This document shows positions 2,165 to 14,046 of a DNA stretch of 64,000 bases, piece by piece (within the stretch, counting starts at the first letter, position 1; the number at the start of each line of letters is the position of its first letter). The DNA lies in the NCBI GenBank assembly GCA_020438355.1, contig JAGQUT010000010.1:1-64000 (forward strand), in the 5' to 3' direction. This DNA comes from Solirubrobacterales bacterium. Its GTDB lineage: Bacteria; Actinomycetota; Thermoleophilia; Solirubrobacterales; 70-9. A program made the translations under genes and the position numbers. The notes below the pieces were generated by a model. It had not been told where the DNA came from. It ran no database searches and saw only the letters and a program-made list of their open reading frames with translations.

Positions 2165-3050
2165 TCTTCGAGGCTACCTCCGCCACTGGATCCCCGGAAA
2201 CCCCCGGTTCCCATCCCGGACCCTTGAAGGCGTAGCCAAACCGGTCGTGCCAGTTGTCGGCCGCCTGGACGTCACGCCAGATGTTCAGGTACTCGCCGTA
2301 GGCCACCTTGACCGGATGGAAGGTGTTGATGTTCTTGGTCAGGCCGTACCTGACCCGTTCCTCCTCCGGCTCGAAGCTGCCGAACATGCGGTCCCAGATG
2401 ATCAGGATGCCGCCGTAGTTCTTGTCGAGGTACTGCTCCTGGGAGCCGTGATGAACCCTGTGGTGGCTGGGCGTGTTGAAGATGAACTCGATCGGCCGCG
2501 GCAGCTTCTTGACCGCCTCGGTGTGGAGGAGGAACTGGTAGAGCAGGCTCCATGAGAAGGCCAGATAGATCATCCACGGCTCGAAGAGCAGGGCCCCGGG
2601 CATCCAGAAGAAGATCGAGCTGAACGGCGACCAGTCCTGTCTCAGAGCGGTCGAGAAGTTGTAGTGCTCGGAGGAGTGGTGGACCACATGCATCGCCCAG
2701 AAGAGTCGGATCCGGTGATGGCTGCGGTGGAACGTGTAGTAGGCCAGATCGTCGACGAAGAAGAGCAGCACCCAGGTCCACCAGTCGGAGGGCGAGAGCT
2801 GGATCGGACTGATCGAGTAGATCGCCGCGTAGATGACCAGCACGACCAGCTTCCAGGCGCCGGCGATGAAGAGATGGCCGACCCCCATGCTGAGGCTTGT
2901 CGCGGTATCCCTGGCCTCGAATCCGATCGGAGCTTCCGGATTCTCCGCCGCGTCTTCGGCGTGCTCCTGCGCCGCATGCCGCAGGGTGAGGTACTCCAGC
3001 CCCATCGCCAGGAAGAAGAACGGGATCGCATAAATGATCAGATCGCCCAT
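2088..3050 (-). CDS. Sterol desaturase / fatty acid hydroxylase superfamily membrane protein
   Basis: A 320-aa di-iron membrane oxygenase-like protein. All three histidine clusters of the superfamily are present: HRSHH, HVVHHSSEHYN and HHRVHHG. Hydrophobic segments at about 5-20, 55-80, 90-105 and 150-175 would place the di-iron site in the cytoplasm. The substrate is unknown (sterol, hopanoid, carotenoid or fatty acid). The hydrophilic final 25-30 residues are encoded within the start of the MBL gene and may be non-family sequence. It lies 21 bp downstream of a GntR regulator gene on the same strand, with a GntR-type operator in the gap. Confidence 0.85.
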   Translation of the reverse strand: MGDLIIYAIPFFFLAMGLEYLTLRHAAQEHAEDAAENPEAPIGFEARDTATSLSMGVGHLFIAGAWKLVVLVIYAAIYSISPIQLSPSDWWTWVLLFFVDDLAYYTFHRSHHRIRLFWAMHVVHHSSEHYNFSTALRQDWSPFSSIFFWMPGALLFEPWMIYLAFSWSLLYQFLLHTEAVKKLPRPIEFIFNTPSHHRVHHGSQEQYLDKNYGGILIIWDRMFGSFEPEEERVRYGLTKNINTFHPVKVAYGEYLNIWRDVQAADNWHDRFGYAFKGPGWEPGVSGDPVAEVASKNERIQPDPHRRPDGPDRDRRLAPTD

Positions 3051-3055
3051 CTGAA

Positions 3056-3072
3056 AAGTGGTTATACCAGTT
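3056..3072. promoter_or_regulatory. Candidate FadR/GntR operator upstream of the desaturase gene
   Basis: Read on the minus strand this is AACTGGTATAACCACTT, an imperfect dyad with core TGGTATAACCA (3059-3069). The core fits the general FadR-subfamily GntR consensus TNGTNNNACNA at every fixed position. It sits in the 21-bp gap between the stop of the adjacent GntR gene and the desaturase ATG, and includes a TATAAC that could be a -10 box. Binding is inferred, not shown. Confidence 0.5.
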
Positions 3073-3758
3073 TAGGGGCCCGCGCGTTCTATGTCGGCTC
3101 TGAGCATGTGCCCGGCTACTTCGGCGGCGGTATCGGGGTCACCGGCTCCGATTGCCCGGCCGAGGCGGGCGATCAGGGCGCCGTCCTGGGGGCGAACCCG
3201 GTCAGCCACTTCACCAACCCCGAGCATGCCAAGCAGCGAGTTCAGGGACAGCCTGTAGGCAATGTTCTCCGAGCCGCCAACCACTGCCAGCCAGAACTCG
3301 GCAAACGCCTGGTCCACTGCTTCGTCCTCACCTGAACCAGCGAGGGCAGCAGCCGTCTCCCCCAGACTCTCGATCTGACTACGGCTGGCCTGATCAGCCC
3401 GGCCCGCGCAGAGGCGCGCCGCGTCAACACCGATCGAAGCACGCATCTCGAGCACCGAGCGGACGATCTCCGCGGGTGGAGCGACCTGGTCACCGCCGAT
3501 GTCGAGCAGAACCTCCAGACCACCCGAATCACGCCAGTCGAGGACCCGGGTCGCGCCTCCGTGAGTGATGCGGACCAGGCCGGCCTGCTCGAGGCGCTTG
3601 AGCGCTTCCCGGACAGCGTGACGGTTCACTCCGAACTCCTCTGCCAGCACCCGTTCGGAAGGGATCCGGTCACCGGGGGCGAGCTCACCGCTGAGTATCT
3701 GGCGCCGCAGCGCATCGTGAACCCGGAGGGAGACGGTTTCTGATCCGGTTTCCGGCAT
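3072..3758 (-). CDS. FadR-subfamily GntR transcriptional regulator
   Basis: A 228-aa regulator. An N-terminal winged helix-turn-helix (about 8-75) contains the GntR hallmarks LRRQILSGELAPGDRIPSE and NRHAVREALKRLE; a helical FCD-type ligand domain follows (about 95-225). FCD proteins usually respond to organic acids or acyl-CoAs and bind Zn or Ni. A GGGAG Shine-Dalgarno lies 7 nt before the ATG. It is followed directly by the desaturase gene, so it probably controls that gene; the effector is unknown. Confidence 0.88.
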   Translation of the reverse strand: MPETGSETVSLRVHDALRRQILSGELAPGDRIPSERVLAEEFGVNRHAVREALKRLEQAGLVRITHGGATRVLDWRDSGGLEVLLDIGGDQVAPPAEIVRSVLEMRASIGVDAARLCAGRADQASRSQIESLGETAAALAGSGEDEAVDQAFAEFWLAVVGGSENIAYRLSLNSLLGMLGVGEVADRVRPQDGALIARLGRAIGAGDPDTAAEVAGHMLRADIERAGP

Positions 3759-3829
3759 CGTCGGATTCTCCCAGACGGTCCGGCTCTGAGGGTCTTGTAG
3801 GTTGAAACCGTTCCCTTAGAAAGGTAAGA

Positions 3830-4324
3830 ATGGCGCGTCTAAGACTTGTCCTGGCGGGAATCGGCCTGACGGTTGGATGCCAGGCTCTCATCCGCCGGTT
3901 GCTGCTCCGGCAGTTTCGACACAGTGTCGATTCCCTGAACCGGGGTGACTATCGTCCGCTCCTTGATGGCTTCGCCGACGACGCCGTCCTCCACTTCAAT
4001 GATGCCCCTCATCGCTGGGCCGGAGAGCACCGGGGCAGAGACCAGATCGAGATCTTCCTCCAGGATTTCGTCGCCGCCGGACTTCAGGGTGAAATCAGGG
4101 AATTCTGGACGTCCGGTCCGCCCTGGGCCTTGACGGCAGTTGCCCGGTTCGATGACCATGCGACCGGGGCCGGTGGAGAAGAGCTCTACTCAAACCAGAC
4201 CATGATCATGGTTCGTACCCGGTGGGGGAAGGTCACGGAGCAAAGGGACTTCTACGTGGATACCGGGCGAATGATCGACTTCGACCGCAAGTTGACTGAG
4301 ATGGGAATCGATTCGGTGCGATGA
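3830..4324 (+). CDS. SnoaL/NTF2-like domain protein with an N-terminal hydrophobic segment
   Basis: A 164-aa protein with a hydrophobic start (about 5-18) followed by an alpha+beta cone fold typical of the SnoaL-like/NTF2-like group: helix with VDSLNRGDYRPLLDGFADDAVLHF, then the strands around REFWTSGPPWALTAVARF. This fold covers polyketide cyclases, isomerases and many uncharacterised proteins, so no reaction is assigned. An AAGG Shine-Dalgarno sits 5 nt before the ATG. Its TGA overlaps the ATG of the downstream hydrolase (ATGA), so the two are translationally coupled. Confidence 0.7.
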   Translation: MARLRLVLAGIGLTVGCQALIRRLLLRQFRHSVDSLNRGDYRPLLDGFADDAVLHFNDAPHRWAGEHRGRDQIEIFLQDFVAAGLQGEIREFWTSGPPWALTAVARFDDHATGAGGEELYSNQTMIMVRTRWGKVTEQRDFYVDTGRMIDFDRKLTEMGIDSVR

Positions 4325-5121
4325 GCCGACAGTTCACCCCGGAATATCGCGGCGGGTCCGGTCCGCCTTTGGTTCTGATCCACGGGTTTACTGACACCTG
4401 GCGGACCTGGGAGCTCGTCATCCCTACTCTCGAGAAGAGTTTTGATGTCCTCGCCGTGACCCTGCCCGGGCACGCCGGCGGACCTGCCGGACCGGACACG
4501 TACACACCTGAGACGCTCCCCGATGGCGTCGCCAAGGCGATGGACAAAGCCGGTTTTGAAGCCGCCCATCTGGTCGGAAACTCGCTCGGAGGTTTCGTTG
4601 CCCTGCAGCTGGCGGCCCGCGGACGCGCCCTCAGCGTCACCGGCCTCGCACCAGCGGGCGGCTGGTCACCGGAGTTCCAGAACCAGTACGCGCTCGATTA
4701 CTTCATCACCCAGCAGGCACTGGTCAAGAAGGCCGCTGCCTTCGCCGACCAGATCGCGGCCACCCCGGAGGGCCGCAGGCAGGCGACCCGCTTCATCGTC
4801 GAGGACGACAGCCTGATCACCGCCGGGATGGTCGTTCACCAGCTGGTAGGCGCCGCCAGCTGTCCCGGGGCCCAGCCGATGATCGAACTCGCCCGCAGGG
4901 AAGGATTCGAACTTGACGCCGAGGCGATCACCTGCGCCGTCCGCCTGATCTGGGGAACCGAAGACAAGCTCCTGCGCTGGCCCGACACCGCGGTCCGTTT
5001 CAGGGAAGAGTGGCTACCCACCGCGGAGTTCATCGAACTCGAAGGGGTCGGGCACTGCCCCCAGCTCGAGGTTCCGGTCGAAGTCGCCGCCCTGATCAGC
5101 GGAACCGCGGCGCTCGCCTGA
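4321..5121 (+). CDS. Alpha/beta-fold hydrolase
   Basis: A 266-aa hydrolase. The catalytic triad can be read directly: S88 in GNSLGG, D215 in WGTEDK and H245 in GVGHCPQ; HGF at 21-23 supplies the oxyanion hole. Its size and motifs match small-molecule esterases, epoxide hydrolases or C-C hydrolases; the acid residue position fits an esterase-like enzyme. Start overlaps the upstream SnoaL-like gene by 4 bp, suggesting the pair acts on related compounds. It converges on the methyltransferase gene with only 1 bp between stops. Confidence 0.85.
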   Translation: MSRQFTPEYRGGSGPPLVLIHGFTDTWRTWELVIPTLEKSFDVLAVTLPGHAGGPAGPDTYTPETLPDGVAKAMDKAGFEAAHLVGNSLGGFVALQLAARGRALSVTGLAPAGGWSPEFQNQYALDYFITQQALVKKAAAFADQIAATPEGRRQATRFIVEDDSLITAGMVVHQLVGAASCPGAQPMIELARREGFELDAEAITCAVRLIWGTEDKLLRWPDTAVRFREEWLPTAEFIELEGVGHCPQLEVPVEVAALISGTAALA

Positions 5122-5122
5122 A

Positions 5123-5842
5123 TCAGGGCTTGCGCCCGAAGATCACGGCGAAACCGTGGTCCTTGAACAGGCAATCAACATCGGTGAAGCCGATCTCCTC
5201 GAGCCAGCCGAGCTGAGTCGACAGCGTACTCAGATGGTCGTGGCTCATCCTCTCGACGGTGTCCGCCCACTCTGCATCGGTTAGACCCTTTTCGAATGAC
5301 TGCTGCCGGTGCCACTCCGCGTAATGCTCCTGGAGTTCAGGGGTCTCGCCCAACACGTGCTCGGCGTTCACGAAGATCCCGCCCGAAGTGAGCTCTCGAC
5401 AGGTCGCCTCGTAAACGGTGCGCTTTCCCTCGTCGGTCATGTGGTGAATCGCCAGGGCAGAGATGACCGCATCCCACGGCCCCGCGGGGATCCCCTCATA
5501 CATGTCGCCGGTGACCGTCATGGCCCGGTCTCCGAGCAGGTCGTGGGCCTGTTCCAGCATTCTCGGCGAGAAATCGAAAAGCGTGAAGTCCGCATCCGGG
5601 AACTCCGCCTGAACCACAGCCGAAAGCATCCCCGTTCCTGCTCCAAGATCAAGAATCCGCAGCCCGGAGCCAGCCCCGCCGGAACCCTTCCCGGCCAGCC
5701 CGACCGCTTCCGGGACCATCCCATAGAAGCGGTCGAGCTGAGGGATCAGTTTTTCGCGCGGGCCGCGGTACGTTGCGGCCTGCCGGTCGAAAACGGTGGT
5801 GGCGCGCGCCAACCTAGAAGCCGCGCCTTTCTGCCTTCGCAC
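5123..5842 (-). CDS. Class I SAM-dependent methyltransferase
   Basis: A 239-aa Rossmann-fold methyltransferase. Motif I is ILDLGAGTG (about 63-71), an acidic ribose-binding region follows at LFDFSPRML, and ALAIHHM corresponds to the post-motif II region common in small-molecule methyltransferases. The N-terminal VFDRQAATYRG element is common in UbiE/TehB-like proteins. The GTG start at 5842 overlaps the end of the acylase gene by 29 bp; an in-frame TTG at 5812, just past the acylase stop, is an alternative. Substrate unknown. Confidence 0.85.
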   Translation of the reverse strand: MRRQKGAASRLARATTVFDRQAATYRGPREKLIPQLDRFYGMVPEAVGLAGKGSGGAGSGLRILDLGAGTGMLSAVVQAEFPDADFTLFDFSPRMLEQAHDLLGDRAMTVTGDMYEGIPAGPWDAVISALAIHHMTDEGKRTVYEATCRELTSGGIFVNAEHVLGETPELQEHYAEWHRQQSFEKGLTDAEWADTVERMSHDHLSTLSTQLGWLEEIGFTDVDCLFKDHGFAVIFGRKP

Positions 5843-8258
5843 CGCCGCCGAAGCGCTTCACCTTCAAACCGGGTGACCGCTTCTGCTGGAAGGGGCAGAA
5901 CCGGTCCATCGCCCAGCCCTTCTTCGAGTAGAGCCTGGTCTGGTCGGCGTAATGCTTCGACTTGGGGTTCTCCGACTGCGAGTAGGTGAGGATCATGCTG
6001 GCCTTCGGGCACTTCGCTCCCGTCAGGTGAACAGCCTGGATGAAGCTCGACCCGTCGCTTATCTCGGTGATTCCCTCACCCGGGACCCAGGGACCGTAAA
6101 CCGGATTGAAGGAACCGTATGGCTCGTAGTCGCCGGCCGGAATCGGGATCTTCTGACCCTGGCGGGTCACCGTCTGGTACTCGCGCCTGGTCGCGTCGAA
6201 CGGAATCCCCTGCGTGATGAACTCGTTGATCGTGTCGGCCAGTACCACCGGCAGATCCGGATTTGAGGTATTCAGCCCGGAGGGAGTACCAACCGGATCG
6301 GTGTAATCAAACGGGTTCGAGTAGACCGGACCGGCGCTCCCGAAGTAGAGGCGGTTTGCGAAGCGCTGGAAGAACAGTCCGCCGGTCGAGTCGAGGTTGT
6401 TCCTGCCGTCCCAGTTCGCCAGCGCGTCACAGGCGGCTGCTGTGTTCTGAGCGCCGCTGGTGCCGACCACGACCGGGTTCGCGTCGCAGTACGCGACGAC
6501 CTGTTCGAGCAGCAGCTCGGCAGACTGGACCCGGTTGTTGTAGAGCATCGCCTTGAGACTGGACAGCGTGAACTTGCCGTTGTCCAGCTTCTCGTTGACC
6601 ATCCTGTGGGCTAGGCGCGTGCGCTCGGACTGGGCGATCCGCTCCTCCCCGATGATCCTGTCGTAGCCCTCGAGCGGCTTGTCCACGTTCGAGAGCCAGT
6701 AGGAATCGTTCGAGTTCTCCACGTAGTCGGAGCGCAACAGGTAAGGCATCTCCGTCGCGGGCAGCAGGCCGGGGCCGGCGGCGCCCTTTGCCTTCTTGCT
6801 CATGTCACAGCTCGAATCGGCTCCGTCGAAGACGGGCAGCCGGAAGGACGGCCATGCGATCGCTCCGATACCGGTGTTGCACTGGGCGATCCGCTCGTCC
6901 GAGGCGTTCGGCACCGCGCCGATGTCCGCGTAGAGCGCCCGGCCCTTCGAATCGGAGGCGATCGTGTTCACCCACGGAATGCCCTGGTACTTCTTGAGGA
7001 TCCTGAGGACCTCCGGAACGCTCTGGGCGCGGCTCACCGAGTAGAAGTGGTTGATCATCCGGAAGTTGCCGGAGTTCGCGTCAAAGAGCGAGTAGGCAGT
7101 GGTCGGCGACCATGCGAACAGCGGAGTGCCCTGGACCGAATTCGTGATGTACCCGTGCTCGGTCGAGTAGAGGGTGCGCTCCCGCCGGACGCCCTCGTCA
7201 TCGGTTACCGAGACGGTCGTCTTCTTCATCGGCTTGGACTGTCCGTCCACGATGTAGCGGGTGGGGTCTTCCGGATCAAGCGTCTCCTGGAAGACGATGA
7301 ACCGACGCGCCGTAGAAACCGTATGGCTCCAGGCCATGTTCCTGGTGTGGCCGATCAGCACCACGGGAACTCCAAGAAGACTCGCACCTGAAACGTTCAG
7401 CTGGCCTGGGATCGTCAGCTGTGCTTCGAAGAAACGCTGGGCACCCTGCCAGGGGAAGTGCGGGTTCCCGAGCAGGAGCCCCTTGCCACCCTGGACAGCA
7501 TTCTTTCCGAGAGCGACGGCGTTGGAACCGAGCCCGCCGGTGAAGTTTCCGAAGTCCGGACCGAAGTCTTCAGCGGTGATCTCAGAGACATCGGGACCGT
7601 CATCCGCCTGGCTCCCCGCCTTGAGAAGTTCGACCTGTGGAGGTTGCGCCTGGGCAATGCCATCCATCGAGGGGTCGGTCGAGCCGTAGCCAAGCAGCTG
7701 GTAGAAGCGCATGTACGCATCCAGGACGGAGATCGGCTTCACCCAGGCCTCGCCGCGACAGCGCGGGTCGGGGAGCTTGCCCACACCGGTCTTCTTCAGG
7801 TAGGCGTTGTAGCCGGCGACGTAGCCCTTGACCACTTCGCGCACCACCGGCAGCGGTCCGTTCGGCGGCTTCAGCTTCATCATCTTCTGGACCGTCCCCT
7901 CCTTGCGGACTCTCTTCCAGAAGAAGTCGGAATCGAGGTTGGAGATGCCGTTGGGTGCGGCGGTTTCGGCGCCGAAGTGAAGGGAACGCTCGCCGCGAAC
8001 GGTCGTGTAGGTGTCAGCCAGAGTGCACAGCTGGTGAGTGGCGATCGACCAGCCGTAGCCGTAGCCGAGACCGTACGGCTTGTCCGCGAGGATCCTCGGG
8101 ATGCCGTATTCGGTGGTGCGGATTGTCACCCTCGGCGGCTTCTTGGCGGCCTGTGCCTGACTGGCGAGTGGCACCGCGATCAGGGCCAGCAGCATCAGCA
8201 AGAGACCTGCTCCCAGCGCAAAATGACGAGCGATACCGGACGAAGACACCTGCCGCAT
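5814..8258 (-). CDS. Secreted penicillin acylase family protein (Ntn-hydrolase), paralogue 1
   Basis: An 814-aa precursor: signal peptide (hydrophobic 14-32, cleavage near AQA), then the alpha chain beginning TIRTTEYGIPRI, and the autocatalytic site GLGSNAVAL whose S245 would become the N-terminal nucleophile of the beta chain. GNPHFPW and SHTVSTARR are typical beta-chain elements of penicillin / acyl-homoserine-lactone / cephalosporin acylases. It likely hydrolyses an amide outside the membrane; the substrate cannot be read from sequence. AAAGGAG lies 4 nt before the ATG. A second paralogue with the same layout lies at 30831-33347. Confidence 0.88.
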   Translation of the reverse strand: MRQVSSSGIARHFALGAGLLLMLLALIAVPLASQAQAAKKPPRVTIRTTEYGIPRILADKPYGLGYGYGWSIATHQLCTLADTYTTVRGERSLHFGAETAAPNGISNLDSDFFWKRVRKEGTVQKMMKLKPPNGPLPVVREVVKGYVAGYNAYLKKTGVGKLPDPRCRGEAWVKPISVLDAYMRFYQLLGYGSTDPSMDGIAQAQPPQVELLKAGSQADDGPDVSEITAEDFGPDFGNFTGGLGSNAVALGKNAVQGGKGLLLGNPHFPWQGAQRFFEAQLTIPGQLNVSGASLLGVPVVLIGHTRNMAWSHTVSTARRFIVFQETLDPEDPTRYIVDGQSKPMKKTTVSVTDDEGVRRERTLYSTEHGYITNSVQGTPLFAWSPTTAYSLFDANSGNFRMINHFYSVSRAQSVPEVLRILKKYQGIPWVNTIASDSKGRALYADIGAVPNASDERIAQCNTGIGAIAWPSFRLPVFDGADSSCDMSKKAKGAAGPGLLPATEMPYLLRSDYVENSNDSYWLSNVDKPLEGYDRIIGEERIAQSERTRLAHRMVNEKLDNGKFTLSSLKAMLYNNRVQSAELLLEQVVAYCDANPVVVGTSGAQNTAAACDALANWDGRNNLDSTGGLFFQRFANRLYFGSAGPVYSNPFDYTDPVGTPSGLNTSNPDLPVVLADTINEFITQGIPFDATRREYQTVTRQGQKIPIPAGDYEPYGSFNPVYGPWVPGEGITEISDGSSFIQAVHLTGAKCPKASMILTYSQSENPKSKHYADQTRLYSKKGWAMDRFCPFQQKRSPGLKVKRFGGGAKAERRGF

Positions 8259-8328
8259 GATTCTCCTTTGGTTGATTCCCTCCCGGGCAGAATACTCCGG
8301 GAGCAGGCCTCGCGGCTATGGTTCGACC

Positions 8329-8787
8329 ATGAGCTCTCCTGCGGATCAAGGATCCGAGCCGGTTGGCCACCTGACCGGCAAATGCGCCTGCGGAAAAGTC
8401 TCCTTCGAGGTCAACCAGCCCCTGATCGGAGCCGCGTACTGCTACTGCAAGCGCTGTCAGAGGCGTACCGGGACCGGCGTGTCCGTCACGGGCCTGACCC
8501 AGCCAGGCTCCTTCACGATCACCGAGGGTGTCGAATCAGTCCACGGTTACGAACCGGGTGACGGCGGATTCGACAAGTACTTCTGCGAGGAATGCGGAGG
8601 CCATCTCTACACCAGCCATCCGGAGAACCCGGACATCCTGGCGATCAGGATGGGGGCGCTGGACCAGGACCCGGGAATCAGGCCGCTGGCCCATCAGTTC
8701 ACCGACTACGCAGCACCCTGGTTCCCGGTCCCGGACGACGACCTCCCTAAGTTCCCGGAACGCCTTGACTGGAGCCAGGTTCTCTGA
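8329..8787 (+). CDS. GFA / CENP-V family zinc-binding protein
   Basis: A 152-aa protein of the glutathione-dependent-formaldehyde-activating (GFA) fold. Zinc-binding cysteines appear in the family order: CACGKVSFE, CYCKRCQRRTG and CEECGGHL. The family is broad and many members have no proven enzyme activity. I chose ATG 8329 over an in-frame upstream ATG at 8257, because the latter would overlap the acylase leader and the added residues look non-coding. TATGGT lies 6 nt before the ATG with no Shine-Dalgarno, a leaderless pattern. The 3' end overlaps the convergent SRPBCC gene by 41 bp. Confidence 0.85.
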   Translation: MSSPADQGSEPVGHLTGKCACGKVSFEVNQPLIGAAYCYCKRCQRRTGTGVSVTGLTQPGSFTITEGVESVHGYEPGDGGFDKYFCEECGGHLYTSHPENPDILAIRMGALDQDPGIRPLAHQFTDYAAPWFPVPDDDLPKFPERLDWSQVL

Positions 8788-9696: not shown

Positions 9697-12030
9697 TCAG
9701 CGGGTGTAGGTGACTTCCTGGCTCGCTTCGCGCTTGCTGTTCTGCGGGTAGGGATCCAGTTCGACCGGAGCGGTGGCGATCGCCTGGGTCCGCAGGTCGG
9801 ACCATGTGAGGCCCTCACGGAGCAGCGCGGGAACTCCCAGCGCGGCGGCCGTGGCCATTTCCACGGCCTGCAGGATCACGCCGTAGGCGAGCGCGGCGTC
9901 GGTCGAAACGCCCCATCCCTTGTGAAGCACAAAGACGACGGCCAGCTGGAAGACACCGATGTTGGACGGCGTCGCGGGCACGATGGCGGTGACGTTCACC
10001 GCCAGCAGAACGGCCGCGGAAGCGGCGAGCCCGGCCTGGCTTTCGAGGCCGAGAGCGAACATGAGAGCCCAGCAGGAGAGCAGCTGGATAACCCAGGCAA
10101 ACAGCTGAAGGGCAACCGCCGGAGCGCCGTTCCGGGGGTGGCGAAAGACCGTCAGTCCGCGACGGACCTGGAGCATTACCGAGTGAACGACCGCTCCGAT
10201 CCGCGCTATCCGGCCTTTCCCGCCCTGGCTCTTCAGCAGCGTCGGGGCGGTTATCACCGCGAGGAGCAGGAAGGCAGGAATCATGCTGTAGAGCAGGATC
10301 TGCTTCGTGGCACCGTGGAAGACGGTGTCCATTGCGCTGAGCACGAAAACCCCGAGCAGCAGGATGGCGAGGATGTTCAGCATGGTCTGGGAGACGATCG
10401 TTCCGATCACCACCGGCAGCGTTTCCTTGGCCCGTCCCGTGTGACGGGCAAGACTTATTGCCCTCGCAGGCTCGCCGAGGCGGGCGGGAAGGGTCGCCGA
10501 CATCAGGACCCCGATCATCGTGGCCGAAGCGAAGTCCCTTCTCTTGAGACCCGAGTGGGGCAATGCGGACTTCGCGATGAAGAACCACGACCAGGCGCGG
10601 AAGAAGAGCGAAGAGGCCATGAGCGCCAGCGCCACAAGCACCCACGAAATGTCCGAGCGGACAAGCTTGTCGGCGACCTGGTCGACCCCGATCTTCTGCG
10701 CGGCAATTGCTGTCAGACCCAGTCCGAAAAGCGCAACCATTCCCAGGGCGGCCTTGCGGAGCCAGCTGCGGCCACCGGCACCCTTTGGAGCGGGCGGGTC
10801 CAGAGAGGGAAGCTTTACGGCCGGAGCCCAGGGCAGGCCGTCAGAGGGCGTGATGCCGAAGCGCCGCCTCGCCCTGTCGACCGACTCCTCGGGCTCGGGA
10901 ACTTCAATGGCCCTCTCGTAGACCTCGGTCACCTGGTCGGCGACGTTCTGCCAGGAGTACCTCTGGGCACTTTCCCTCGCAGCCTCCCCCATCCTGGCCA
11001 GCCGTTCAGGCTCATGGTGGGCTCGCTGGAGTTCCTCGGCAAGAGCCTGGGGGTCTGCCGGGGGCACGAGGACCCCGTCGTGGTGGTTTGTCACCACGTC
11101 GCTGTAACCGGCTATTCCGGAGGCGATAACCGGTGTGCCGACCGCGAAGGCTTCCGTGAGGATCATCCCGAACGACTCGCCCGAGAGGGAAGGTGCGACC
11201 AGAACGTCCGCGTCGTGAAGTTGCTGCCAGAGCTCTTCATTGGACACCCGGCCGAGCAGATCAAGGTGGTCGTTCAGCTCCGGGTGGGCGAGGATCCGCT
11301 GGACATCCGCGGGGTCAGCACCAATTACGGAGAGGCGGGCCGGGACGTGGTCGACCAGGGCGGAGAAGGCCCTGAGAAGCACCGGCAGTCCCTTGCGTTC
11401 GTCGGGCCGGCCAACGAACAGGGCCCGAAGGTGATCGGTCTGCGGTTTCGGACCGGTCGGGGCGGCGTCCACGTCCACCCCGTTCGGGACGATCGTGTAG
11501 TTGCCACCGAACCAGCGTCGCCCGGTCCAGGCCGCGGCCTGAGAGACGGCTATCCGGCCGGAGAGCTTGTTCAGCACCCGACGCGCACCGGCGGCGTTGG
11601 CGAGGAAATTGGGGACGGGCTTGGTCGAGTACGCGTGGAAGGTTCCGACCACCGGCACATCCGAGGAGAGGCAGGTGTCCCAGCCGTTTACCGGAGTCAT
11701 CGGCTCATGCAGATGGACCACGTCGAAGTTGCCCTGCTCGATCGCCCGCCGCGTACGGACGATGCCCTCGGGAAAGACTGGAATGTTCGAAACCGAACCG
11801 TTGGCGTTGATCCCGAAGGTGCGACCAACCGGAATCAGGTAGTCCGGAATTTCGCGATCCTCCGCTTCGGCACGATGAAGCACCTTCGAGAGGCGGTCCG
11901 GTGGATCAAAGGGAGCGATCACACGGACGTAGTGGCCCCGGGAGATGTACTCCTCGGCGAGTGACTGGACGTGCCGGTTTACGCCGCCCTGATAAGTCCA
12001 CGAATACGGTGTGACGAGGGCGATTCGCAC
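9697..12030 (-). CDS. GT4 glycosyltransferase fused to a flippase-like (LPG synthase TM / UPF0104) membrane domain
   Basis: A 777-aa two-domain protein. Residues 1-385 form a GT4 GT-B glycosyltransferase resembling phosphatidylinositol mannosyltransferases: HLHEP at 107-111, nucleotide-binding R212/K213 and the retaining E-x7-E pair E285/E293. A Pro-rich linker (about 395-425) leads to a polytopic domain (about 430-735, roughly 7-8 segments) with the ATLPARLGEPAR and PATPSNIGVFQ elements of the flippase-like / MprF N-terminal family. The domains are usually separate genes; a fusion suggests that a lipid is glycosylated and then moved across the membrane by one protein. It lies 42 bp downstream of the polytopic phosphatase-like gene. 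Confidence 0.85.
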   Translation of the reverse strand: MRIALVTPYSWTYQGGVNRHVQSLAEEYISRGHYVRVIAPFDPPDRLSKVLHRAEAEDREIPDYLIPVGRTFGINANGSVSNIPVFPEGIVRTRRAIEQGNFDVVHLHEPMTPVNGWDTCLSSDVPVVGTFHAYSTKPVPNFLANAAGARRVLNKLSGRIAVSQAAAWTGRRWFGGNYTIVPNGVDVDAAPTGPKPQTDHLRALFVGRPDERKGLPVLLRAFSALVDHVPARLSVIGADPADVQRILAHPELNDHLDLLGRVSNEELWQQLHDADVLVAPSLSGESFGMILTEAFAVGTPVIASGIAGYSDVVTNHHDGVLVPPADPQALAEELQRAHHEPERLARMGEAARESAQRYSWQNVADQVTEVYERAIEVPEPEESVDRARRRFGITPSDGLPWAPAVKLPSLDPPAPKGAGGRSWLRKAALGMVALFGLGLTAIAAQKIGVDQVADKLVRSDISWVLVALALMASSLFFRAWSWFFIAKSALPHSGLKRRDFASATMIGVLMSATLPARLGEPARAISLARHTGRAKETLPVVIGTIVSQTMLNILAILLLGVFVLSAMDTVFHGATKQILLYSMIPAFLLLAVITAPTLLKSQGGKGRIARIGAVVHSVMLQVRRGLTVFRHPRNGAPAVALQLFAWVIQLLSCWALMFALGLESQAGLAASAAVLLAVNVTAIVPATPSNIGVFQLAVVFVLHKGWGVSTDAALAYGVILQAVEMATAAALGVPALLREGLTWSDLRTQAIATAPVELDPYPQNSKREASQEVTYTR

Positions 12031-12072: not shown

Positions 12073-14046
12073 TTAAGGAGCCTTCTTCGAAGTTCTTGAC
12101 GTGGTCCAGGCAAAACCCAGTGCCAGAGCCAGATACAGGGTTCCAACCTGAATGAAAAGTGCCCCCGAATCGTTGGTCAGAGCTCCAACCAGCGAACCGG
12201 CGGCAGCCCCGGCCAACCCGGCCCTGACCATCGGCACGTCGGCGACCCAGCCCAGAACGGTGGTTCTTTTCCAGATCCCGATGCCGATCACTGCCAGAGC
12301 GGCGAGGGTCACCGGCACCCTTGAAACCTTCGTGAAACTCTCGATCGTCGCATCGAGCCGACGACCGATCACGTCGAAGAAAGAGCCCCCCGAACCTCCC
12401 ACGACAGACCTCACGAAGTGGGTCTCGGAACCGGTGATGATGTCCGCCAGGCCGATCAGAAGCAACGCCAGCAGCGCGACTGCCAGCCCGACCCAGGCCA
12501 GCCTCGGACGCCCGACAGCGAAGGAGGCAGCGACCACCGCGGCCACTGGAAAGACGATTGCGGCCCCGACGTCCGCGCCAAACCTGCCGGCAGCGAAGAC
12601 AACGGTGGCAATCAGCCCCAGCCCGAGAAACCAGGCTGCCGAGCGTCGCGGCCCGGTCGCTTTCCAGGCGAGCGCCGCTCCCGTCCCGACCGAGGTCAGG
12701 ATCATCAGGGTCGACTCGAGTTCGTTGCCGATTCCATAGAAGCGGGCACCAAGCCCCGGGTTGGGACCAATCACCGCCCTCGGGGTCAGGGCCGAACCGG
12801 CCAGCATGTCGATGCCATACGGAATGACCGTCAAGGCACAGGCCAGAGCGAGCGACTGCCAGCCGGGGGCGAACCGCATCAGTAGCGCCCCGATCATCAC
12901 CGGCATGATCGTGGCGATGGTCCTCTCCACCGTCAGGGACGGTTCGAGCGCCGCGGTCAGCAGGAGGACCCCCGGCAACAGGACCGTCGAAAGACAGAGC
13001 AGCCGGACGGCCGGCCGGGCGTAGAGGCCCCTCGTAGCCAGGGCTACCAGTCCGGCGATCGCAATCCAGAACATGAGCGGAATCGCGAGGGCGGCTCCGC
13101 GCCGCTTGCCAACCTCCTCGTACCGGCTCTCGAGGTCCGACAGCTGCTCGAGGTCAAGTTCACCGCCTGACTCGATCGGCTGACCGGTCATCAACTTCGG
13201 GGGCCTGATTCCGAAATGACCAAGGATCGTCGGGGCAAGATCCGTTGACAGCACGTAACCCTCGGTCCTGGTGCTGCCGGATTCGAGCATTCCCGAGGTC
13301 CCGGGGCCGGCGATGGCGATCGTCAGCTGACCGCCGGATTCGGCAGGGGGCCTTTCGACGAAAATCTGGAGATCTGCGCTCCGGCGACGTTCGGAGGCTT
13401 CGATCGCACTGTCCAATGGCATCGAAAGGACCGTGACCGGGTCCGGGCATCCCCTGATTGCAGATCGTGAGCCTGGTGAATCCGGCTCGATCATGGAGGC
13501 GGGACCTCCGCAGACCCTTGGAGCCCGGGCGACGACCCCATCCCGCCTGACCACCGACAGCGACGCGGTACCAGCCGACTCCGCGGCCGCCGCGGCCAGC
13601 GCATTTCGGGCAAGAACCGAGGCCAGAAGACCGGGGATCACCGGACTCTCGGTCGATTTCGCGCGGCGGAGTACTTTCTCCCATCCCTGCGCCGATTCTC
13701 CGCCCGGGTACACTCGGTCTAACGGTGTGTCATACGAGGTGTCAAACGCCCTTGCTCCCTGCGACACGTCGAGCCAGGTCTGCTGCGCCGAGACCTCCCC
13801 CAGGCCGGGATTCATGAGCCCGAGAGCGGCGCCCTCAAGGGCTGTCAGATCTTCGGGGCTCGTGCCCTGAGGCAGAACGATGATCGAAACCTGGCCGTGA
13901 TGGCCGGCTGCGGTGTCCTTCACCGACTGATCGGCAGCCTCGGAAAGCGGCGGAGCGAGAGTCCCTCCGGTGCCCAGGGCCAGGAGCGCCAGGAAAGCAA
14001 TTCCTGCAGCCCACGCCCTCCTCCCCGGTATCTTCAGATGCCGCAT
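12073..14046 (-). CDS. Polytopic membrane protein with a phosphatase-superfamily-like extracellular region
   Basis: A 657-aa protein: signal/TM segment (about 11-33), an extracytoplasmic region to about 320, then about ten hydrophobic segments to the end. DLAPTILGHFGIRPP (about 268-282) resembles the C-terminal part of alkaline-phosphatase/sulfatase-fold enzymes, but the metal-binding Asp/His motifs of that fold are not seen, so this part may be degenerate. The membrane half includes RFYGIGNELES and LTNDSGALFIQVG. I do not recognise a named family. It precedes the GT4-flippase gene in what looks like one operon, which suggests a role in envelope glycan or lipid export. Confidence 0.65.
   Translation of the reverse strand: MRHLKIPGRRAWAAGIAFLALLALGTGGTLAPPLSEAADQSVKDTAAGHHGQVSIIVLPQGTSPEDLTALEGAALGLMNPGLGEVSAQQTWLDVSQGARAFDTSYDTPLDRVYPGGESAQGWEKVLRRAKSTESPVIPGLLASVLARNALAAAAAESAGTASLSVVRRDGVVARAPRVCGGPASMIEPDSPGSRSAIRGCPDPVTVLSMPLDSAIEASERRRSADLQIFVERPPAESGGQLTIAIAGPGTSGMLESGSTRTEGYVLSTDLAPTILGHFGIRPPKLMTGQPIESGGELDLEQLSDLESRYEEVGKRRGAALAIPLMFWIAIAGLVALATRGLYARPAVRLLCLSTVLLPGVLLLTAALEPSLTVERTIATIMPVMIGALLMRFAPGWQSLALACALTVIPYGIDMLAGSALTPRAVIGPNPGLGARFYGIGNELESTLMILTSVGTGAALAWKATGPRRSAAWFLGLGLIATVVFAAGRFGADVGAAIVFPVAAVVAASFAVGRPRLAWVGLAVALLALLLIGLADIITGSETHFVRSVVGGSGGSFFDVIGRRLDATIESFTKVSRVPVTLAALAVIGIGIWKRTTVLGWVADVPMVRAGLAGAAAGSLVGALTNDSGALFIQVGTLYLALALGFAWTTSRTSKKAP

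What the first reader, a model, noticed from the sequence alone, without database searches (positions are those of the whole stretch)
9697..12030. Glycosyltransferase-flippase fusion
A GT4 domain with an intact E-x7-E pair is joined to a polytopic UPF0104/flippase-like domain. Known PIM-type pathways use separate enzymes and an unidentified flippase. A natural fusion suggests lipid mannosylation (or similar) is coupled to translocation.
Basis: partly seen in the sequence, partly recalled or inferred. Interest (0 to 1): 0.52.

Follow-up and report, generated by a model that had tools for sequence, protein, structure and literature searches.

The report
PimA mannosyltransferase fused to lipid flippase
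A soil-bacterium protein joins the enzyme that starts making a mannose-tipped membrane lipid to a domain shaped like a known lipid-flipping protein, which suggests that the lipid is made and turned over to the outer face of the membrane by one molecule.

Summary
Minus-strand ORF 9697-12030 (777 aa) is a GT4 glycosyltransferase (aa 1-380) joined to an LPG_synthase_TM/UPF0104 membrane domain (aa ~424-752). It is not chance: 54 of 61 genomes of the order carry it (49 full length, 5 cut by contig ends). The GT is the PimA ortholog by sequence, fold, tree and reciprocal search; E-x7-E is invariant in 40 of 40. The membrane domain, folded alone, matches only the MprF flippase domain (Z 16.5-18.8; next 5.5) and lacks the MprF aminoacyl-transferase domain. 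In a sister family the two halves are separate neighbouring genes in 29 of 30 loci; the 30th has no room. A fusion-bearing species, Solirubrobacter deserti, is reported to contain PI and PIMs. Best reading: PIM1 is made on the cytoplasmic face and handed to a built-in scramblase/flippase. Flipping is inferred, not shown. Glycosyltransferase fusions to this domain are known as a kind (AglD, PplT proteins); my searches found no print on a PimA fusion. New variant of a known kind, and a testable candidate for the unidentified PIM flippase.

The parts
9697..12030 (-). Fusion gene, 777 aa, GTG start
   Evidence: ORF and translation; orthologs in 54 of 61 genomes of the order
10891..12030 (-). PimA-type GT4 (GT-B) mannosyltransferase domain, aa 1-380
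   Evidence: Pfam; best solved relative PimA E~1e-49; fold Z 39.5 to 2gej; reciprocal search; tree
11152..11178 (-). E-x7-E motif, E285 and E293
   Evidence: Invariant in 40 of 40 orthologs, aligned with PimA E274/E282
10768..10890 (-). Linker, aa 381-421, Pro-rich, its second half of low confidence in the model
   Evidence: Model pLDDT about 50 around aa 411-440
9775..10761 (-). Membrane domain, LPG_synthase_TM/UPF0104 (PplT) type, aa 424-752
   Evidence: Pfam; TIGR00374 E 2e-9, below its cut-off; fold equals the MprF flippase domain, Z 16.5-18.8
10459..10497 (-). First conserved hairpin turn ATLPARLGEPARA, aa 512-524
   Evidence: P515, R517, G519, E520, R523 invariant in fused and separate forms, 35 of 35 (there numbered P92, R94, G96, E97, R100); lies around breaks between modelled helices
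9955..9981 (-). Second conserved hairpin turn VPATPSNIG, aa 684-692
   Evidence: P685, N690, G692 invariant in 35 of 35 (there P262, N267, G269); break between modelled helices 668-683 and 690-706
12073..14046 (-). Upstream gene, 657 aa, 42 bp before the fusion, probable operon partner in part of the order: weak alkaline-phosphatase-superfamily signature, then a membrane domain
   Evidence: No Pfam or NCBIfam hit alone; weak profile hits to sulfatases, phosphonate hydrolases, iPGM and SGSH_C in 12 of 30 members; directly upstream in 23 of 69 named-collection loci with room

Best explanation
A bifunctional lipid-mannosylating and lipid-translocating enzyme. The cytoplasmic N-terminal PimA-type GT4 domain transfers mannose, probably from GDP-mannose, to phosphatidylinositol to give PIM1 (inferred from orthology). 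The C-terminal MprF-type domain lets the product cross the bilayer to the outer leaflet. Selectivity may come from proximity: the lipid is released next to the scramblase groove. The fusion arose in an ancestor of most Solirubrobacterales from a gene pair that sister families still keep. Shown here: the two domains, orthology of the GT to PimA, the membrane domain's kinship to the separate genes next to PimA elsewhere, its MprF flippase fold (predicted), the conserved pairing. Inferred: substrate, donor sugar, topology, translocation.
For: PimA is the top solved relative by sequence (E 9e-50; first chain that is not PimA 4e-20) and by fold (2gej Z 39.5, 350 aligned, 35% identity; PimB' 31.9). 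A PimA from another actinobacterium, next to a PatA gene in its own genome and nearest M. smegmatis PimA in the tree (56% identity), finds this fusion as best hit in the window's genome (221 bits; next 103). Tree: fused GTs are one clade (100*) inside the PimA group, apart from 7 of 8 GT4 paralogs (98*). Equivalents of PimA H118, K202, E274 are invariant in 40 of 40, R196 kept in 35 of 40. Membrane domain: six MprF entries Z 16.5-18.8 over 258-279 residues, then a drop to 5.5. Gene pair: directly downstream PF03706 gene in 7 of 48 stand-alone-GT genomes of the phylum sample, a lower bound as the listing was cut; 29 of 30 loci of a sister family, the 30th having 97 bp. The paired genes are of the right subfamily: fused and paired membrane domains sit in one supported group (98*, 38 of 68 rows) that excludes the other two PF03706 copies of the window's genome. 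The window's genome has inositol-phosphate synthase and a CDP-alcohol phosphatidyltransferase side by side. Solirubrobacter deserti CPCC 204708, which carries the fusion (L147), is reported with PI and PIM (PMC10722151, passage).
Against: No activity is shown for any member. The PIM report is by TLC, and the same paper's species description omits PI and PIM. The membrane domain has no sequence match to MprF chains even by profile and TIGR00374 is below its cut-off; kinship to MprF rests on Pfam and on a predicted fold of moderate confidence (mean pLDDT 79), and Foldseek alone gives MprF only E 0.007-0.07. PatA (PF03279), an early enzyme of the mycobacterial pathway, is missing from the window's genome and from 10 of 11 other genomes of the order, so the downstream pathway must differ. 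Genomes without the fusion still have inositol-phosphate synthase (6 of 7), so that gene does not track it. The basic patch of PimA is only partly kept (R77/K78 positions vary; K80/K81 are R in 37 of 40). One GT-only copy exists inside the order (G580, L254). Three genomes of family f7 have the GT but no PF03706 protein.
Confidence: 0.62

Rival explanations
1. The membrane domain is only an anchor that keeps the mannosyltransferase at the membrane, with no lipid transport.
For: PimA itself is a peripheral membrane protein (PMC12041525, passage); an anchor would be an easy gain. One order member has a GT-only copy.
Against: An anchor needs one helix, not a whole MprF-type domain with two conserved hairpins and 32 invariant positions shared by fused and separate forms. 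As a separate downstream gene it cannot be a covalent anchor, yet the pair is conserved.
Confidence: 0.12
2. The GT glycosylates another lipid (phosphatidylglycerol, diacylglycerol or a polyprenyl phosphate) and the membrane domain flips that product, as proposed for GpgSDF.
For: GpgS, also GT4 with a UPF0104 partner gene, makes GlcNAc-PG (PMC12713373, passages); the GT has a weak hit to the NCBIfam model of such a synthase (60.5 bits, cut-off 480). PatA is absent.
Against: Orthology to PimA by four tests; the GpgS-type match is far weaker; PI and PIM reported in a fusion-bearing species.
Confidence: 0.15
3. The domain is an unspecific scramblase for bulk lipids (PI included) whose fusion to PimA has little to do with PIM; the GT simply profits from membrane location.
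For: P. aeruginosa MprF moves many lipids without an energy source (PMC11980842, passages).
Against: The genome has 2 other PF03706 proteins that could serve bulk lipids, and the paired subfamily stays next to PimA in the sister family. This reading overlaps with the best one.
Confidence: 0.1
4. An MprF-like aminoacyl-lipid protein.
For: Same transport fold as MprF.
Against: No aminoacyl-transferase domain found in the 777 aa; the soluble domain is a GT4.
Confidence: 0.01

Closest known systems
PimA (Rv2610c, phosphatidylinositol mannosyltransferase; 2gej, 4n9w)
   Same: N-terminal 380 aa: fold, 35% identity, E-x7-E, H118/K202/E274 equivalents
   Different: PimA is a stand-alone peripheral protein, in many actinobacteria next to PatA; here it is fused to a membrane domain and the genome has no PatA
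MprF N-terminal flippase/scramblase domain (7duw, 6lvf, 9goe, 7f47)
   Same: Predicted fold of the C-terminal domain, Z 16.5-18.8
   Different: 13-16% identity; no DUF2156 aminoacyl-transferase; order of domains reversed (enzyme first)
AglD of Haloferax (glycosyltransferase + UPF0104)
   Same: Glycosyltransferase N-terminal, UPF0104 C-terminal in one chain (PMC5898192, passages)
   Different: GT family 2 (recalled), archaeal N-glycosylation; here GT4 PimA
GpgSDF (P. aeruginosa) and HexSDF (C. difficile)
   Same: GT plus UPF0104 protein for a membrane glycolipid (PMC12713373, passages)
   Different: Separate genes with a deacetylase; other acceptor lipids
PplT domain proteins (Hauser et al. 2022 preprint)
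   Same: Cited as showing that the MprF transport domain is often fused to glycosyltransferases (PMC11980842, passages)
   Different: I could not read the preprint, so whether it lists a PimA-type fusion is unknown

Membership tests
PimA (GT4 PI mannosyltransferase) | GT-B fold nearest to PimA | tested here: met
   Foldseek ranks 1-5 all PimA; Z 39.5
PimA (GT4 PI mannosyltransferase) | E-x7-E and catalytic positions | tested here: met
   E285/E293 40 of 40; H118, K202, E274 equivalents 40 of 40; their roles are recalled
PimA (GT4 PI mannosyltransferase) | Reciprocal best match and place in tree | tested here: met
PimA (GT4 PI mannosyltransferase) | Gene next to PatA (PF03279), a usual but not universal trait | tested here: not met
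   No PF03279 in the window's genome; next to the GT in 15 of 37 and within 2 kb in 6 more stand-alone-GT genomes
PimA (GT4 PI mannosyltransferase) | Makes PIM1 from PI and GDP-mannose | not testable with these tools
   Needs an assay
LPG_synthase_TM / UPF0104 / PplT domain | Pfam PF03706 over its curated score | tested here: met
   94.4 bits, cut-off 33.4
LPG_synthase_TM / UPF0104 / PplT domain | NCBIfam TIGR00374 over its cut-off | tested here: not met
   37.1 bits, cut-off 43.2, E 2.4e-9
LPG_synthase_TM / UPF0104 / PplT domain | MprF flippase-domain fold | tested here: met
   Six MprF entries Z 16.5-18.8, next 5.5
LPG_synthase_TM / UPF0104 / PplT domain | Lipid translocation | not testable with these tools
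   Needs proteoliposomes
MprF | DUF2156 aminoacyl-transferase domain | tested here: not met
   No such Pfam hit in 777 aa
AglD | GT2 domain | tested here: not met
   GT4-type families only
GpgSDF / HexSDF | Neighbouring deacetylase gene | tested here: not met
   Five neighbouring proteins scanned: upstream gene no hit; others HTH, AHSA1, alpha/beta hydrolase, pyridine nucleotide reductase

The most novel reading that the evidence does not exclude
The membrane domain is a dedicated phosphatidylinositol-mannoside flippase, the first one tied genetically to PimA, and PIM translocation in other actinobacteria is done by members of the same UPF0104/PplT family.
Probability: 0.2. Interest if true: 0.78.

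Novelty: new variant of a known kind. Interest (0 to 1): 0.52.

Why it matters
Which protein moves PIMs to the outer leaflet is an open question in mycobacterial envelope work: a 2025 paper still calls it an unknown flippase (PMC12041525, passages). Here evolution has tied the PIM-initiating enzyme to a domain with the fold of a characterised lipid scramblase in two forms: as a gene pair in sister families and as a fusion in Solirubrobacterales. That names a candidate family and gives a single-chain protein in which synthesis and translocation can be assayed together.

Tried and rejected
Inositol-phosphate synthase by PF07994 found 1 of 37 genomes, a poor model for these proteins; PF01658 found 36 of 37, so presence of the synthase does not discriminate fusion carriers. 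My first idea that the upstream gene is a fixed partner failed: 23 of 69 loci. The G037 'split' gene was two contig ends. Profile search of the membrane domain against solved chains gave only a chance hit; the fold search decided it. I considered that the GT in the inositol operon of contig C72 (L038) is the true PimA; it is a GT4-PHP fusion with weak similarity (60 bits against 221), so I rejected that.

Print searches on the fusion or its parts; none listed a PimA fusion, but the library lacks preprints and most subscription journals, and I read only passages of the papers named.

Full report
Observation. The ORF at 12030-9697 (minus strand) encodes 777 aa. Pfam finds a complete GT4 (Glyco_transf_4, Glycos_transf_1) followed by LPG_synthase_TM, all over their cut-offs. 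Of 61 genomes of the order, 49 hold a full-length ortholog, 5 hold pieces that stop at contig ends, 7 lack it. The best 80 loci in a named collection include Solirubrobacter, Conexibacter, Patulibacter, Paraconexibacter and Svornostia and many Solirubrobacterales MAGs; 77 of 80 have both domains in one frame. In 396 genomes of the phylum, 62 match at E 1e-60; the 14 in the order are fused (one of them split between contig ends), the other 48 match over the GT part only. In a class sample, 273 of 399 genomes match at E 1e-55; I did not sort all of these, as the place list was cut.

The GT half. PimA is the nearest solved protein by sequence (E 9e-50) and by fold (Z 39.5). The tree of 48 GT rows puts 16 fused GTs as one clade within the group that holds M. 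smegmatis PimA and PimA genes linked to PatA, with 7 of 8 GT4 paralogs outside (98*); the eighth, the long-branched GT4-PHP of the own genome, falls on the 41-row side, its place unsure. A PatA-linked PimA used as query returns the fusion first in the window's genome, 221 bits against 103. In 40 orthologs the equivalents of PimA Y9, G15, G16, H118, R201, K202, E274 and E282 are invariant and R196 is R in 35, Q in 5.

The membrane half. Modelled alone from 35 sequences (mean pLDDT 79) it matches six MprF entries at Z 16.5-18.8, over 258-279 residues; the next chain is at 5.5. Foldseek alone puts five MprF chains first but with E 0.007-0.07. Five of the six alignments stay within MprF residues 35-362, the N-terminal part that holds the flippase domain; the range of 7duw runs to 847 (first and last residue only). 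The two most conserved stretches, ATLPARLGEPARA and VPATPSNIG, sit at breaks between modelled helices, which would suit the double inverted hairpin described for MprF (PMC11980842, passage). A rough look at charges finds a strongly basic loop and helix at 600-630 and neutral or acidic short loops at 567-573 and 660-667, consistent with a cytoplasmic GT; this is not a topology test.

Pair and fusion. In the phylum sample a PF03706 gene lies directly downstream of the stand-alone GT in G089, G169, G436, G363, G230, G126 (same class) and G339 (same phylum), 7 of 48, gaps -14 to 77 bp; the listing was cut, so this is a lower bound. G339 is 61% complete and its pair falls among sequences of another family, so it may be foreign. 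With a sister-family GT as query, the 30 best loci give 28 by my rule and one more (L280) on inspection; the last has 97 bp of room. These 30 loci were the best of 55 matching genomes out of 61 searched. In the tree of 68 membrane domains, the 21 fused form one clade (100*), and fused, paired and ten others form a 38-row group (98*); fused and paired are not proven to be each other's nearest. Three genomes of family f7 have a PimA-like GT and no PF03706 protein at all (G103, G241, G304), so the pairing is not universal.

Elsewhere in the phylum the GT is next to PatA instead: directly (under 150 bp) in 15 and within 2 kb in 6 more of 37 stand-alone-GT genomes examined. In the class and order PatA is all but absent: 2 of 22 genomes, E 8e-10 and 1e-19, neither near the GT.

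Setting. The window's genome has inositol-phosphate synthase, a CDP-alcohol phosphatidyltransferase, a GT4-PHP fusion and a PAP2 protein on one contig (L038). Conexibacter woesei is reported with PI as main polar lipid (PMC3035278, passage); S. deserti with PI and PIM, though its formal description leaves them out (PMC10722151, passages).

What is known. GT fusions to this domain exist: AglD and, by citation, PplT proteins. GT plus UPF0104 gene sets make glycolipids in GpgSDF and, as cited there, HexSDF. What is new here, as far as my searches go, is the PimA type, the sister-family gene pair and the order-wide fusion. Verdict: real, well supported as to parts, moderately novel; translocation is still to be shown.

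Noticed in passing
L038 (G000:C72) 2361-8482: Probable PI-synthesis operon: inositol-phosphate synthase, CDP-alcohol phosphatidyltransferase, a GT4 fused to a PHP phosphoesterase, an unannotated membrane protein and a PAP2 protein. The GT4-PHP fusion may act on a phosphoinositide.
   Followed up: partly
12073-14046: 657-aa protein without Pfam or NCBIfam family: weak alkaline-phosphatase-superfamily signature plus a membrane domain with an almost invariant RFYGIGNELE motif; a homolog is convergent with a stand-alone PimA-like GT in two genomes (L092, L096).
   Followed up: partly
L241 2847-5949: G363 has a second, divergent GT (238 bits) near a second membrane gene (116 bits) on the same strand, about 500 bp apart: a possible paralogous pair.
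   Followed up: no
L160, L191: Contigs titled 'Bifidobacterium breve' MAG carry the fusion and look like mislabelled Solirubrobacterales.
   Followed up: no
L131, L166: Conexibacter sp. CPCC 206217 holds two copies of the fusion.
   Followed up: no
L254 3389-4720: A GT-only relative inside the order (G580): the membrane half is missing and the next gene looks like an aldolase-type protein (the name is recalled).
   Followed up: partly
5814-8258: 814-aa minus-strand ORF that reads like a penicillin-acylase-type secreted hydrolase (recalled, no family search run).
   Followed up: no
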